Below are positions 48,158-55,066 of a DNA stretch of 64,000 nucleotides, one piece after another. Each line of letters opens with the position of its first letter. Positions within the stretch are counted from its first letter, which is position 1. The notes below the pieces were generated by a model that was not told the DNA's origin, searched no databases, and worked only from the letters and a program-made list of their open reading frames with translations. A program made the position numbers and the translations under genes. Source of the DNA: an uncultured Erysipelotrichaceae bacterium (GTDB lineage: Bacteria; Bacillota_I; Bacilli_A; RFN20; CAG-826); contig CADCLU010000004.1 of NCBI GenBank assembly GCA_902802355.1, positions 1 to 64,000 of the forward strand, read 5' to 3'.

Positions 48158-48510
48158 TTATTGCTTGAGTTTGGCGGAGGCGACTTTGACGTCTTCCTCG
48201 TCTTTGTTGATGGTAAGAGGGCGACCCTTAATGAGCTCAAGGGCCTCTTCTTCGGAATCCGCTTCAAGGGCGGTTTCGCTAAGCACGATGATCTTGTCAT
48301 CAGGTTTGACTTCCACTGCCCCATGCCACAAGGCAAAGAAGCGGCTCTTGCCGAAAGACGTGATCTTAGCCACGCCCGTAGGCTTAAGCTCGCCGACGAC
48401 AGGCGTATATCCCCTCATGATGCCCATAGGGCCTCTCGTGGTTGGGAGATAAAGCTCGTCGCACTCGCCTTCAAAGGCGATTCCATTTGGGGTGAGGATG
48501 AGAAGTTCCA

Positions 48511-48511
<1 letters not shown>
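48158..48511 (-). CDS. atpC: ATP synthase epsilon subunit
   Basis: It is the central-stalk subunit linking gamma to the c-ring, and can inhibit ATP hydrolysis. The 117-residue protein has the N-terminal beta-sandwich (LLILTPNGIAFEGECDELYLPT, GYTPVV) and a short C-terminal helical part. It is shorter than the usual 130-140 residues, so the inhibitory helix is reduced. It is the last gene of the operon and overlaps the atpD stop by one base. Confidence 0.92.
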
Positions 48512-49944
<1,433 letters not shown>

Positions 49945-50805
49945 TTATTCGTGGGCATTTGCCCCTCCCACCACCTCGGTGATTTCCTGGGTGATGGCGT
50001 TTTGTCTTGCTTTGTTGTATTCGATGTTGAGTTTCTCGAGTAACTCATCAGCGTTGTCGTTAGCGTTATCCATGGCCGTTCTTCTAGAGGCTTGCTCGCT
50101 TAACTCGCTTTCAAGCAATCTGCCATATAGCACGCTGGTGAGGTAATCAGGCATGAGCGAATGGATAAGGTCCCTAGGGCTCTCGTCGAAGATCGGAGGG
50201 CAGAAGGATTCGTTCTTCCATTTCTTCGGAGTGATTTGGACGGGGAGGAACTGGAAGGTTAACGGGGTGAAGGTTATCGAGTTGATGTAATGGGTGAAGA
50301 TGATGCAGATGTTCTTGTACTTCTCTTTGTTGAATTCATCTTTGAGTTTGAGGCAGAAAGAACGGAGCTTTTCCATATCGAGATCAAGGTCCGCTTCCAT
50401 AAAATCCCTGACAATATTGAGGTATTTTTCGTTTCTCTCGTAGTGATGGATGGCTTTGTTGCCAATCGGAACGATGTAGTCGGTTGGCTTGATTATCGAG
50501 TCTGCGTATTTGAAGAGATTGCTATTATAGGCACCGCATAAACCCATGTTCGAAGAGATGACGATGTAGAGGGTTGGGAGGTCGCCTTTGTTGAGACAGC
50601 CGTAGTGAGACATCGTCTCTTTGTCGTGGCTGAAAAGCATCGCCATAAGGTTCTGGTATTCTTCGATGTAGAAGTTGCTCTTCTCGAAGGCATCCTTAAG
50701 ACGTTTGGTCTTGACCGTGGCGATGAGCTCCATCGCTTTGGTCGTCTTCTCCGTCCCTTGGATGGCTAAGATCCTATGTTTGGTTTTGCTTAATGAGCCA
50801 GGCAT
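49945..50805 (-). CDS. atpG: ATP synthase gamma subunit
   Basis: It forms the rotating central shaft. The 286-residue protein begins with the helix KTKHRILAIQGTEKTTKAMELIATVKTKR and ends with the matching C-terminal helix (RRTAMDNANDNADELLEKL, ITQEITEVVGGA). The central part contains SSNMGLCGAYN. It starts 2 bases after the atpA stop. Confidence 0.95.
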   Translation of the reverse strand: MPGSLSKTKHRILAIQGTEKTTKAMELIATVKTKRLKDAFEKSNFYIEEYQNLMAMLFSHDKETMSHYGCLNKGDLPTLYIVISSNMGLCGAYNSNLFKYADSIIKPTDYIVPIGNKAIHHYERNEKYLNIVRDFMEADLDLDMEKLRSFCLKLKDEFNKEKYKNICIIFTHYINSITFTPLTFQFLPVQITPKKWKNESFCPPIFDESPRDLIHSLMPDYLTSVLYGRLLESELSEQASRRTAMDNANDNADELLEKLNIEYNKARQNAITQEITEVVGGANAHE

Positions 50806-50807
50806 TC

Positions 50808-52334
50808 TTACTTAGTCACTTCCTTTTTGAGTTTGTAGATTGACTTGTATTCCTTGATGGCGGCAATGAGTCTCTCATTGAGTTCGTCACTAAAGGCTTT
50901 CTTTTCATTTAATTCGTCGATGATTTCCTTATGGGAATCCTCAATGTAGGTGTACATCTCGGAAAGGAATGGGTTGACCTCTGGGAGAGGGAGGTCATCG
51001 AGGAATTTCTTATTGACCGCGAAGAGTTCGATGATCTCGCGGATCATGTTCATTGGGGCCCAGTTGACCTGCTTGAGGGCTTCGGTGACGACCGCACCAT
51101 GGGTGAGGATGCGCTTGGTCTCGGCATCGAGGTCGCTTCCGAACTGGGAGAAGCTCAAATTCTCACGGTAGTTAGCAAGCTCGATCTTTAAGGATGAGGC
51201 GACTTGCTTCATGGCTTTGATCTGGGCGGAGCTACCAACACGGCTGACAGAAAGACCGGAATCAACAGCAGGACGCTGGCCGGAAGCAAAGAAATCGCTC
51301 ACGAGGAAGATCTGTCCGTCGGTGATGGAGATGATGTTCGTCGGGATGTAGGCGCTGATATCGCCAGCCTGGGTCTCGACGATTGGGAGAGCGGTGATTG
51401 AGCCACCGCCGTAATCTTTCGAGAGTTTACAAGCTCTCTCAAGAAGTCTGCTATGGAGATAGAAGATGTCGCCTGGATAAGCTTCACGGCCTGGGGCTCT
51501 TCTTAAAAGAAGAGAAAGGGCACGATAGGCGACAGCGTGCTTACTTAAATCGTCGAAGACGATGAGGACGTCCTCACCGTTTTCCATCCACTCCTCAGCC
51601 ATGGCCATGCCCGCGAACGGGGCGACGTATTGCTGAGGCGCTGGCTCGGAGGCGCTGGCGTTAATGACCGTAACGTAATCGAAGCAGCCTCTTTGTTTGA
51701 GCTTGGCGACGATTCCGGCGACGGTAGAGTTCTTCTGACCGATCGCGACATAGACGCACTTAACGTTCTTGCCTTTTTGATTCACGATGGTGTCGATGGC
51801 AATGGAGGTCTTGCCAGTCTGACGGTCACCGATGATGAGCTCACGCTGACCACGGCCGATCGGAATCATGGAATCGATGGCTTTGATGCCCGTTTCGAGA
51901 GGGGTATTGACGGATTTTCTCGTCATGACGCCAGGAGCGATTCTCTCAATTGGGCGCGTTTTTGCATAGGATATTGGTCCCGCTTCGTCTAAAGGAAGAC
52001 CAAGAGGAGAGACGACTCTTCCAAGTAATCCATCCCCTACTGGGACCTCAACTACTTTGTGGGTGCGCTTGACGGTATCGCCCTCTTTGATCTGCCTGTC
52101 GCTGCCTAAAAGGACGGCGCCGACATCATCGAGGTTGAGGTTCATGACCATGCCATAGACGTCGTTAGGGAAAAGAAGAAGCTCACCGAGCATGGCGTTC
52201 TTAAGGCCATAGATTGTCGCAATGCCATCGCCGACTGCGATGACGGTGCCTACGTCGCTGCTCTCGACAAGGTTCTCATATCCCTTGATCTGCTCCTTGA
52301 TGAGAGCGCTTATCTCACTGGGGTTTAGTTTCAT
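50808..52334 (-). CDS. atpA: ATP synthase alpha subunit
   Basis: It is the non-catalytic nucleotide-binding F1 subunit. The 508-residue protein has the N-terminal [11 protein letters not shown], Walker [34 protein letters not shown] and [21 protein letters not shown]. It overlaps the atpH stop by 4 bases. Confidence 0.97.
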
Positions 52335-52882
52335 ATCTTTCCTCCGTCTGTTTTGAGAAGGGTGCTGCGTAAACGCTCAACCTTCCCAAGGATGGTCCCG
52401 TCAAAGACTTTGTCATCCACATATACTTTCACGCCGCCGATAAGACGATGGTCGACGTGGTTCTCGAGCTCCACTTTGGAACCAAGGCGGTCCCCGATGG
52501 ATTTCTCGATCTTTTTGATTTCTGATTCGGTGAGTTTCTCCGCCGAATAGACGATTCCTTCCTTTATTCCGGAATAATCGTTAGCGAGTTTGTTGAACGA
52601 TGAGGCGATGATCTCGAAATGGATGATCTCGTGCTTCATCATGAGGAGCTTAAGGAAAGCCGGAATCTCTTTGTTCTCATAATCCCCGAAGAGTTTGTCG
52701 ACGAGGTTGTTAAGGGATTCCTCTGGAAGCGAGTACGAAGCAAGCGTTTCCAAAAGCTCAGGGTTTTCCCTGAAAAGGCTTAGAACCTTCTTCATTTCCT
52801 TTTGGAAAGAAGGGACTTTCTTCACCTCTAGTGCCAGCTCATAAAGGCCGGCTGCGTATGCGTTTGCTTCCGCTCCCCTCAT
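52331..52882 (-). CDS. atpH: ATP synthase delta subunit
   Basis: It connects the peripheral stalk to the top of F1. The 183-residue protein has the N-terminal six-helix domain ([21 protein letters not shown]) and the conserved C-terminal strand region ([35 protein letters not shown]). It lies between atpF and atpA. Confidence 0.94.
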
Positions 52883-52891
52883 TTATTCTCC

Positions 52892-53440
52892 TTATTCGTC
52901 CACGCTGTCGACGAATTCATCGACGAGCTTGGCATTATCCTCTTTGTTCACTTCACGGCCAAGGACGGCTTTAGAGGCATCGAGGGCGACATTGACGATT
53001 TCCTCTCTGATGGCGCGCTTAGATTTCTCTTCGGCCTGAGCGATAGCCTCATCGGCCGCTCTCTGGCGGGCCTCGGCTTGCTCGTTGGCGTTCTTGATGA
53101 TGCCCTCGGCACTGACTTCGGCGTCGCTTTTGGCTTTGGAAATGATTTCCCCTGCCTCTTTACGGGCCTCGGAGATCATCTTGTCGCTTTCGGCGACTTT
53201 CTTCTCGTACATGGCTTTCGAAGTCTCGCTGTCGCGGATGTTCTTCTCCACGTAGTTCTTTCTGGCGTCGAGGTATTTCTTAACCGGTTTGTAGGCGATT
53301 TTGTAAAGGAACACGAAAAGGACGATTAACGCGAGAAGGTTGATGAGCAAGCTCCAGAAGTTTGGAAAAAGCTTGTTCAAGAAGTCCTCAGCGGTAAAGG
53401 GAGGTGCAGAATCGTATACTTTGATTCCTAATCCGTTCAT
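52892..53440 (-). CDS. atpF: ATP synthase b subunit
   Basis: It forms the peripheral stalk. The 182-residue protein has one membrane segment (about residues 28-50: FWSLLINLLALIVLFVFL), then the YKPVKKYLDARK motif and a long charged coiled coil (about 60-160). It follows atpE by 17 bases. Confidence 0.94.
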   Translation of the reverse strand: MNGLGIKVYDSAPPFTAEDFLNKLFPNFWSLLINLLALIVLFVFLYKIAYKPVKKYLDARKNYVEKNIRDSETSKAMYEKKVAESDKMISEARKEAGEIISKAKSDAEVSAEGIIKNANEQAEARQRAADEAIAQAEEKSKRAIREEIVNVALDASKAVLGREVNKEDNAKLVDEFVDSVDE

Positions 53441-53457
53441 CCTTATAGGTCCTTCGA

Positions 53458-53709
53458 TTACATGCCTGCGTTAAGAGCTGGAAGACCCATCAAGAAGATG
53501 ATGAGAATGGCGACGACAAGGGCGTAGATGGCGGTTGACTCGTCAAGAGCGACCGCGACGATCATGTTGCTGCGGAGCTTGCCAGCCATTTCTGGGTTTC
53601 TGACCATGCCGTCGATTGAGTGGCAGCAGATGAGGCCTTCACCGATGGCGGAGAGGCAGCCCATGCCGACTGCGATGGCGGCTGCGATTGCGCATAAACC
53701 TGCATTCAT
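53458..53709 (-). CDS. atpE: ATP synthase c subunit with two-carboxylate, Na+-type site
   Basis: It forms the membrane rotor ring. The 83-residue hairpin has helix 1 with GMGCLSAIGEG, the polar RNPE loop and helix 2 with DESTAIY. The ion-binding glutamate is E57, with S58 and Y62 beside it, matching the ES-x3-Y pattern of Na+-binding rings (E65, S66, Y70 in Ilyobacter). In helix 1 the position of the Na+ ligand Q32 is a glutamate (E24). Such a pair of carboxylates was described for the Na+-driven enzyme of Fusobacterium nucleatum. Na+ coupling is therefore predicted. CAGAAAGG-like spacing upstream is ordinary, with AGGAGG before the ATG. Confidence 0.94.
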   Translation of the reverse strand: MNAGLCAIAAAIAVGMGCLSAIGEGLICCHSIDGMVRNPEMAGKLRSNMIVAVALDESTAIYALVVAILIIFLMGLPALNAGM

Positions 53710-53740
53710 ATTTTTTTCCTCCTTATATGAATTGGTGTCC

Positions 53741-54634
53741 TTATCCTTCGATCACAAGGGGCCTAGTCTCAGAAGCAGGAAGAACATCTTCCTTCTTTTC
53801 TGGCTCTGGTTCTGGCATCTCTTGCGAGATCCAGATGGCCGAAAGCGATGAGAAGACCAGAGTTTGGATGAACCCTGAGAATAAGGAGAAGTAAGAGTTG
53901 AACACACCGACAGGGCCTGGGGCGAGGAAGATGCTCGTCCAGCCTGGGTTGTTCCAGAACGATGAGGTGCCGATCGTGCCAACGACGCCGAAGGCCTCAA
54001 AGATTCCGCTTGACGCGGAGCTAAGAGCCCACTGCACGAGTCCGACAAGGATCGTACCTGATAAGCAGTTGCCAAATAAACGCATCGTGGTTGAGACGAT
54101 TGGCGCCCACATGGTGATGAGGTTGACAGGGAGGAAGATGAAGATTGGCTCCACGTAACGGTGGAAATAGCCAAGCTTCGAATACTTGATTCCCTGGTAT
54201 TGGATGATCGTGAACATGATGATGGCAAGGCAAAGAGGGCAAGCCAGCCAATCAACTAAGCTCGGAAGTCCGAATAAAGAGATATTGAAAGCGAGGAAAA
54301 GATAAGCAAAGAGGGTCCAGAAATAACCGCCCCAGCCAATATGGTTCTCACCCATATTCGAACCGGCGAAGTTGTTGCACATATCGTAATAGAGCTCAGC
54401 GAAGAACATGATGCCCTTCGGTTTCTGGAGATACTCTTTGTTCTTGAGGGCGATTCTCGCTCTGATGCCCACCACCGTTCCTAAGATCATGAGAACGAGG
54501 ATGACGAAAAGCGAGCTGACAAGAGGTGCGTCTATCGAAGCCCAGCCATCCCAATGGAACATCGATTCCATTTTGTCGTTAAAAGAATGGGATGTTGCGC
54601 TAGTGACTCTATCGTAAACGGCTAAGAGGTTCAC
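53741..54634 (-). CDS. atpB: ATP synthase a subunit
   Basis: It holds the stator half-channels for the ion. The 297-residue protein has several membrane helices, the conserved arginine in STTMRLFGNCLSGTIL on helix 4-5 and the final helix FSLFSGFIQTLVFSSLSAIWIS. The C-terminal tail is Glu/Pro-rich (EPEPEKKED). The start lies 3 bases after the AtpI-like gene. Confidence 0.94.
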   Translation of the reverse strand: MNLLAVYDRVTSATSHSFNDKMESMFHWDGWASIDAPLVSSLFVILVLMILGTVVGIRARIALKNKEYLQKPKGIMFFAELYYDMCNNFAGSNMGENHIGWGGYFWTLFAYLFLAFNISLFGLPSLVDWLACPLCLAIIMFTIIQYQGIKYSKLGYFHRYVEPIFIFLPVNLITMWAPIVSTTMRLFGNCLSGTILVGLVQWALSSASSGIFEAFGVVGTIGTSSFWNNPGWTSIFLAPGPVGVFNSYFSLFSGFIQTLVFSSLSAIWISQEMPEPEPEKKEDVLPASETRPLVIEG

Positions 54635-54637
54635 GTT

Positions 54638-55066
54638 TTATCCTCTCTTAGCCTTTAACTGGCTAATGACAAGGAAGACCTGGACAGGAAGAAGTCCTGC
54701 GAAGGTCGTCCAGAAATTGAACATATCGAATCCGCCGAACCAAGAAGGTACCCAAGTGCAGATGGCGGCGATGACCAAAACGACGATATAGATGAGGAAC
54801 CTTAAGGCGACGAAGATGATGACCCTCGCTGCGCTTGGGTTTGGATTCTCTTCGGTTGGGAGAAGGGCTTCGCTCATCTTGATGATGGTCCAAAAGGAAA
54901 TAATCTCGGCAACCGTGCCAAGCAACCAGCCCATCGGATAGGAGTAACCCTTGTCCTCATAGAAGAAGAAAAATGGGCACATTCCGATGAAGGCCACCAC
55001 ACCTATGACAAGGAGCCAGAAGAGAGATTTCTGATGTTCGTTTAATTTAAGATATTTTTCGACCAT
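54638..55066 (-). CDS. atpI: AtpI-like membrane protein heading the ATP synthase operon
   Basis: The 142-residue protein has four predicted membrane segments (residues about 17-35, 45-65, 85-108 and 118-137) and stands directly before atpB, the place of AtpI, which is thought to assist c-ring assembly or ion handling. Sequence similarity to well-known AtpI is loose, so the name rests on topology and position. A TATACT -10 lies 25 bases before the ATG; the predicted 18-base leader shows no Shine-Dalgarno. Confidence 0.7.
   Translation of the reverse strand: MVEKYLKLNEHQKSLFWLLVIGVVAFIGMCPFFFFYEDKGYSYPMGWLLGTVAEIISFWTIIKMSEALLPTEENPNPSAARVIIFVALRFLIYIVVLVIAAICTWVPSWFGGFDMFNFWTTFAGLLPVQVFLVISQLKAKRG

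What the first reader, a model, noticed from the sequence alone, without database searches (positions are those of the whole stretch)
53458..53709. ATP synthase c subunit with two membrane carboxylates (E24, E57) and ES-x3-Y: predicted Na+-driven
E57-S58-x3-Y62 matches the Na+ ligand pattern of c-rings, and E24 stands exactly 33 residues before E57, where Q32 lies in Ilyobacter tartaricus. A Glu pair at these positions was described in Fusobacterium nucleatum as a two-carboxylate Na+ site. This would place a Na+-coupled F-ATPase of that unusual type in a Bacilli/Mollicutes-like organism and tie its energetics to a sodium gradient.
Basis: partly seen in the sequence, partly recalled or inferred. 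Interest (0 to 1): 0.7.

Follow-up and report, generated by a model that had tools for sequence, protein, structure and literature searches.

The report
Sodium-type ATP synthase, rewired ion channel
A rumen bacterium's ATP synthase rotor carries a complete sodium-binding site with two glutamates, its genome also encodes sodium pumps (one of them beside a gene that could help replace the missing last step of sugar breakdown), and it shares with close relatives an unexplained reshuffling of acidic residues along the ion path.

Summary
The c subunit is real and correctly read, on the minus strand in a complete F-type atp operon. E24, E57, S58, T59 and Y62 align without gaps with E32, E65, S66, T67 and Y70 of the Fusobacterium nucleatum ring, so the full Na+ side-chain ligand set is present. 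The second Glu alone proves nothing, because H+ rings share it. The two-Glu site is not peculiar to this organism: 91 of 95 c sequences of its order have it, the rest of the class mostly has Gln. Three things were missed. D56, next to the ion-binding Glu, adds a third acid. The a subunits of a 35-sequence clade lost the His241/Asp245 pair and gained Asp145. In the window's subclade the decarboxylase shares an operon with a PEPCK-like gene and pyruvate kinase is absent, suggesting a Na+-pumping PEP-to-pyruvate route. Na+ coupling is likely (about 0.8) but unmeasured. New variant of a known kind.

The parts
53458..53709 (-). atpE, F-type c subunit, 83 aa; E24, E57, S58, T59, Y62 = F. nucleatum E32, E65, S66, T67, Y70; extra acid D56 = position 64
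53741..54634 (-). atpB, F-type a subunit (GTG start), 297 aa; R210, N214, Q252 (E. coli numbering) kept; 119=S, 219=T, 241=N, 245=S; new D at 145
54638..55066 (-). MG406/AtpI-like small membrane protein at the head of the operon
   Evidence: NF033688 29.8 bits, below its 40-bit cut-off
52892..53440 (-). atpF, b subunit
   Evidence: TIGR01144
52331..52882 (-). atpH, delta subunit
   Evidence: TIGR01145
50808..52334 (-). atpA, alpha subunit
   Evidence: TIGR00962, 773 bits
49945..50805 (-). atpG, gamma subunit
   Evidence: TIGR01146
48511..49926 (-). atpD, beta subunit
   Evidence: TIGR01039, 816 bits
48158..48511 (-). atpC, epsilon subunit, 117 aa
   Evidence: TIGR01216 53.5 bits, below its 67-bit cut-off, E 2e-14

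Best explanation
This is the rotor subunit of a Na+-coupled F1Fo-ATP synthase. By analogy with F. nucleatum, each site binds one Na+ through E24, E57, S58, the backbone at L55 and a water held by T59, with Y62 locking E57; E24 stays protonated and acts like the Gln of other rings, so Na+ and no proton moves. The Na+ gradient that drives it would come from a Na+-pumping oxaloacetate decarboxylase and from Rnf. In the window's subclade the decarboxylase is encoded with a PEPCK-like enzyme and pyruvate kinase is absent, so PEP could reach pyruvate by PEP + CO2 + ADP to oxaloacetate + ATP, then to pyruvate + CO2 with Na+ export. Shown: the ligand residues, the operon, the pumps' genes, the conserved OadB Na+ residues, absence of pyruvate kinase from the assembly. 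Inferred: Na+ binding, direction of flow, the metabolic route. The extra D56 and the moved acids of subunit a are a lineage-specific change of the ion path whose function is unknown; my guess is a half-channel that conducts Na+ through neutral polar groups and no longer needs a proton relay.
For: Complete Na+ ligand set in gap-free register with 3zk1 and 1yce. Decarboxylase operon L096: PEPCK-like, OadA (NF008985 above cut-off), OadG, biotin carrier, OadB (TIGR01109, 460 bits over 190.6), biotin ligase. OadB matches the solved S. typhimurium OadB (E 8e-107) and keeps the GGADGPTAI and NPxIGxAGVSAVPMAARV loops with Asp203 and Ser382, whose replacement abolished Na+ binding. RnfC and RnfD in the window's genome, an rnf C-D-G-E-A run in close relatives. 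No Proton_antipo_M protein in 26 genus genomes (control: found in 13 of 14 reference genomes); a single PF00137 match in the genome, so no V-type ATPase. E. coli proton-relay residues E219, D119 and H245 (PMC10532555) are T, S and S in the window's a subunit.
Against: No measurement of coupling exists. D64 has no counterpart in any solved ring I know and could shift the site's proton affinity. The Na+-type ligand set is also present in genus members that have neither OAD nor Rnf (G004, G007, G012), so the pumps do not track the site. In relatives with the same c ligand set subunit a keeps His241 and Asp245, so their loss is not required for the Na+ type. PPDK is present and could make pyruvate without OAD. 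The PEPCK call is weak (PF01293 E 8e-11, only one PDB match at E 3e-4), although the GExKKG, P-loop and HDD motifs are there.
Confidence: 0.8

Rival explanations
1. The ring is H+-coupled. The Glu pair binds two protons, one of them permanent, as proposed for S. pneumoniae and M. tuberculosis and consistent with the H+-specific B. pseudomallei N-type ring; the Na+ ligands are an ancestral remnant.
For: Two-carboxylate rings that move H+ exist (PMC3692424 and PMC5376962). The B. pseudomallei ring also has Thr and Tyr at 66 and 70. An added acid next to E57 could raise proton affinity.
Against: The B. pseudomallei ring has Met at position 67; here it is Thr, and T67 with the rest of the set is kept in 75 of 95 order sequences. 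The a subunit lacks the titratable residues of the E. coli proton path, with only a new D145. The recognisable primary pumps of the genome, OAD and Rnf, are of Na+ type or compatible with it.
Confidence: 0.08
2. The ring uses both ions, Na+ at neutral pH and H+ when acidic, as reported for Methanosarcina acetivorans.
For: The F. nucleatum ring is itself H+-selective and uses Na+ only because Na+ is in large excess (PMC3692424). D64 is an extra titratable group. The rumen is Na+-rich and mildly acidic (general knowledge).
Against: The ligand set is that of F. nucleatum, where protons were not co-transported; nothing here shows a lower Na+ preference.
Confidence: 0.1
3. It is a Na+ ring (compatible with the best explanation on that point), but the enzyme mainly runs backwards as an ATP-driven Na+ exporter in a fermenter; the decarboxylase serves other purposes.
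For: Genus members without OAD and Rnf keep the same ligand set, so there the ATPase may be the only primary Na+ pump. A fermenter without a respiratory chain needs one.
Against: In the window's own genome two other Na+ pumps are encoded, which would supply a gradient for synthesis.
Confidence: 0.35

Closest known systems
Fusobacterium nucleatum F-type c11 ring (PDB 3zk1/3zk2, PMC3692424)
   Same: All side-chain Na+ ligands: E32, E65, S66, T67, Y70; two carboxylates; single-hairpin F-type c subunit
   Different: Position 64 is Asp instead of Ala, position 63 Leu instead of Val; glycine motif G-L-A-G-G; different phylum; subunit a of the window's clade lacks the His241/Asp245 pair of its own relatives
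Ilyobacter tartaricus / Propionigenium modestum Na+ F-ATPase (1yce), fed by decarboxylation
   Same: E65, S66, T67, Y70; a Na+ decarboxylase as the likely source of the gradient
   Different: Gln32 there, Glu here; other substrates there, probably PEP-derived oxaloacetate here
Gln32-type c subunits of other lineages of the same class (57 of 64 distinct sequences sampled)
   Same: Same E65, S/T66, Y70 pattern, about half with Thr at 67
   Different: Gln at 32, never Asp at 64 (0 of 64), His241/Asp245 mostly kept in subunit a
PEPCK plus oxaloacetate decarboxylase bypass of pyruvate kinase (PMC3561251; review PMC8100219)
   Same: PEPCK-like and OAD genes together, pyruvate kinase absent
   Different: Here the OAD is the membrane Na+ pump and shares an operon with the PEPCK-like gene; the review calls use of the Na+ pump outside citrate/tartrate fermentation unresolved
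Burkholderia pseudomallei N-type c17 ring (PMC5376962)
   Same: Glu in helix 1, Glu-Thr-x3-Tyr in helix 2
   Different: Met at position 67 and measured H+ specificity; N-type operon

Membership tests
F-type ATP synthase c subunit | Match to the family model and location in a complete atp operon | tested here: met
   TIGR01260 above cut-off; all F1Fo genes adjacent; AlphaFold hairpin pLDDT 94 matching c rings
Na+-type c ring (I. tartaricus ligand set) | Q/E32, E65, S/T66, polar 67, Y70 in one register | tested here: met
   E24, E57, S58, T59, Y62 at constant offset +8 to 1yce and 3zk1
Na+-type c ring (I. tartaricus ligand set) | Na+ protects from DCCD / Na+ stimulates the ATPase | not testable with these tools
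   needs the protein
Two-carboxylate Na+ ring (F. nucleatum type) | Glu at position 32 together with the Na+ ligand set | tested here: met
Two-carboxylate Na+ ring (F. nucleatum type) | Na+ plus a permanent proton seen in the structure; c11 | not testable with these tools
   needs a structure; the altered glycine motif leaves ring size open
Na+-pumping oxaloacetate decarboxylase (in the same genome) | OadB with Asp203 and Ser382, OadA, OadG, biotin carrier | tested here: met
   OadG 31 bits, below its 36-bit cut-off
Rnf complex (in the same genome) | rnfC, D, G, E, A, B | tested here: inconclusive
   rnfC and a cut rnfD on a 3.9 kb contig; no RnfA/E in this assembly; rnfC, D, G, E, A and a short rnfB candidate in close relatives
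V/A-type Na+ ATPase | 16 kDa double-hairpin K subunit | tested here: not met
   one PF00137 match, single hairpin, in the genome

The most novel reading that the evidence does not exclude
In this clade the ion path of Fo has been rebuilt: the titratable His241/Asp245 pair of subunit a was replaced by Asn/Ser, a new Asp145 appeared, and the rotor carries a third carboxylate (D64) beside the ion-binding Glu. Together these would make a Na+-only half-channel without a proton relay, coupled to a glycolysis whose last step is itself a Na+ pump.
Probability: 0.25. Interest if true: 0.75.

Novelty: new variant of a known kind. Interest (0 to 1): 0.5.

Why it matters
What sets the ion choice of an ATP synthase is usually read from the c ring alone. 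Here is a natural set of 35 distinct enzymes in which the c-ring Na+ ligands stay in place while titratable residues of the stator are lost, beside sister lineages that keep them. That makes the role of the half-channel residues in ion choice testable. The PEPCK-OAD operon with pyruvate kinase absent would, if it carries glycolytic flux, be a case of the Na+-pumping decarboxylase serving sugar breakdown, which PMC8100219 names as an open question, and would show how uncultured rumen bacteria of this kind gain energy.

Tried and rejected
Chance or misalignment of E24: rejected, the register is gap-free against both solved Na+ rings and conserved over the order. The HMMER alignments to chloroplast and Spirulina rings place a one-residue gap before E24; order relatives with the intact glycine motif show that this gap is not needed. 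A second rotary ATPase: none. Citrate, malate or PEP-carboxylase origin of oxaloacetate: E. coli citrate lyase, malate dehydrogenase, malic enzyme and PEPC found no counterpart in the genome; this is a weak test for distant homologues; only the PykF query was validated, on relatives' pyruvate kinases (41% identity). I first thought of reading the OAD/pyruvate-kinase exclusion as repeated evolution; the tree puts the OAD genomes in one clade, so it counts as a single event. A table in PMC2359735 looked like a list of Na+ ATPases; it lists V-type ATPases and is not used. The direction of the D64 side chain from a helical wheel is too crude to use. No phage match, as expected.

Full report
What was claimed.

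Observation. The ORF 53458..53709 lies on the minus strand and encodes 83 residues. It sits in a complete F-type operon on that strand, in the order AtpI/MG406-like, a, c, b, delta, alpha, gamma, beta, epsilon (48158 to 55066). The best matches to the solved Na+ rings run at a constant offset of +8 (3zk1 query 4-73 to chain 12-81; 1yce query 6-73 to 14-81). Hence E24, E57, S58, T59 and Y62 are E32, E65, S66, T67 and Y70 of F. nucleatum, and L55 is the backbone ligand V63. All side-chain ligands listed in the crystal structure paper are present (PMC3692424). An AlphaFold model of the hairpin (pLDDT 94, 17-sequence alignment) matches c rings as expected, 3zk1 among them at 36% identity. The genome is a 1.09 Mb metagenome-assembled Bacilli genome (96.6% complete) whose closest public relatives are rumen records.

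What it means. Two points have to be separated. The Glu pair alone is not evidence of Na+: the paper that described it names H+-driven S. pneumoniae and M. tuberculosis with it, and the B. pseudomallei N-type ring with two Glu, Thr at 66 and Tyr at 70 was measured as H+-specific. That ring has Met at position 67. The evidence for Na+ is therefore the full set E32/E65/S66/T67/Y70.

Distribution. In the window's order 91 of 95 distinct c sequences have Glu at 32 and 3 have Asp; in the rest of the class 57 of 64 have Gln and 7 Glu. The two-carboxylate site is thus the ordinary state of the order, where the class mostly has the Gln type. 75 of 95 order sequences have the strict set with T67. Some have Val or Ile at 67 and by the same reasoning would be doubtful Na+ rings.

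A third acid. D56 (position 64, Ala in F. nucleatum) stands next to the ion-binding Glu. It is present in all members of the window's genus examined except one genome (Cys in L009 and its duplicates) and in 44 of 95 order sequences, but in 0 of 64 sequences from the rest of the class. A DNA pattern for D-E-[ST]-T-[AG]-I-Y hit 15 of 392 genomes of the phylum sample, all in the window's order. On the a-subunit tree it needs 6 changes, so it was gained or lost several times. Its function is unknown.

Subunit a. I aligned 156 a subunits with the E. coli one. R210, N214 and Q252 are kept in the window. A described proton path in E. coli runs Glu219, Asp119, His245, Asn214, Gln252 to cAsp61 (PMC10532555); in the window the three titratable positions are T, S and S. 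Most relatives instead have His at 241 (114 of 121) and Asp at 245 (113 of 121). In 35 sequences including the window, 241 is Asn (32) or Gln (3), 245 is never Asp (Ser 26, Gly 3, Thr 3, Ala 2, Asn 1), and 145 is Asp in all 35 where the others mostly have Thr, Ser or Ala. With these three columns left out, the 35 form one clade (SH-aLRT 100, stem 0.57). The change is therefore one historical event, stable since. c-D64 is present throughout that clade apart from the Cys case, but also in other families that keep Asp245, so the two are not strictly linked. I read this as a rewired half-channel; it is compatible with Na+ conduction without a proton relay, but that step is inference.

Na+ pumps. 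PF03977 found an OadB in the window's genome. Its neighbourhood L096 encodes, in one direction, a PEPCK-like protein, OadA, OadG, a biotin carrier, OadB and a biotin ligase. OadB aligns with the solved S. typhimurium protein at E 8e-107 and keeps the loops with Asp203 and Ser382, whose mutation abolished Na+ binding there. RnfC and a cut RnfD lie on a short contig; RnfA/E are missing from the assembly, while close relatives have rnfC, D, G, E, A together. No complex I/Mrp-type protein was found in 26 genus genomes. Pfam scans of 45 of the 136 ORFs with several membrane segments showed secondary transporters (Na+/H+ exchanger, CitMHS/ArsB type, PHO4, TrkH) and P-type ATPase parts but no further primary Na+ or H+ pump.

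Pyruvate kinase. PF00224 is absent from the window's genome and from all 9 genus genomes that have OadB (the window's included); 16 of the 17 without OadB have it (Fisher p 3e-6). Eight of the 9 fall in one clade on the a-subunit tree and the ninth, G023, is not in it, so this is probably one event. The PEPCK-like gene was found in 8 of the 9 and in none of the 17. PPDK is present in 23 of 26 including the window, so the OAD route is not the only way from PEP to pyruvate. E. coli queries found no citrate lyase, malate dehydrogenase, malic enzyme or PEPC (a weak test). A PEPCK/OAD bypass of pyruvate kinase is described for other fermenters (PMC3561251), and whether Na+-OAD works outside citrate and tartrate fermentation is called unclear (PMC8100219).

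Verdict. Na+ coupling is likely (0.8) and now has support from outside the c subunit. The site itself is a known kind. What is new, as far as these searches show, is the lineage-specific third acid, the rewired subunit a, and the metabolic setting. None of it has been measured.

Noticed in passing
L096 7809-9080 (G000 contig C14): A 423 aa protein at the end of the decarboxylase operon: its C-terminal half is a biotin ligase (BirA) and its N-terminal half reads like a BioY biotin transporter, an apparent fusion of biotin uptake and biotin attachment.
   Followed up: partly
G000 genome and 25 genus relatives: Pyruvate kinase is absent from every genome that has the Na+-pumping decarboxylase and present in 16 of 17 that lack it; one genome (G012) lacks both.
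   Followed up: partly
window 53741-54634 and 34 related a subunits: His241/Asp245 of subunit a lost and Asp145 gained on one stem branch.
   Followed up: yes
window 53458-53709 (c helix 1, residues 17-25): Glycine motif is G-L-A-G-G instead of G-G-G-G-G, which may change the number of subunits in the ring.
   Followed up: no
L122, L123, L124, L125, L126, L131: A second kind of F-type c subunit in the order with Val or Ile at position 67; some genomes (G055, G087, G103) carry two different c genes.
   Followed up: no
L276 2657-2980, L280 2027-2389: The gene near rnfA in the place of rnfB encodes only 108 to 121 residues, short for RnfB.
   Followed up: no
L059, L068, L071: Another family of the order carries a double-hairpin K-type subunit (V/A-type ATPase) that the window's genome lacks.
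   Followed up: no
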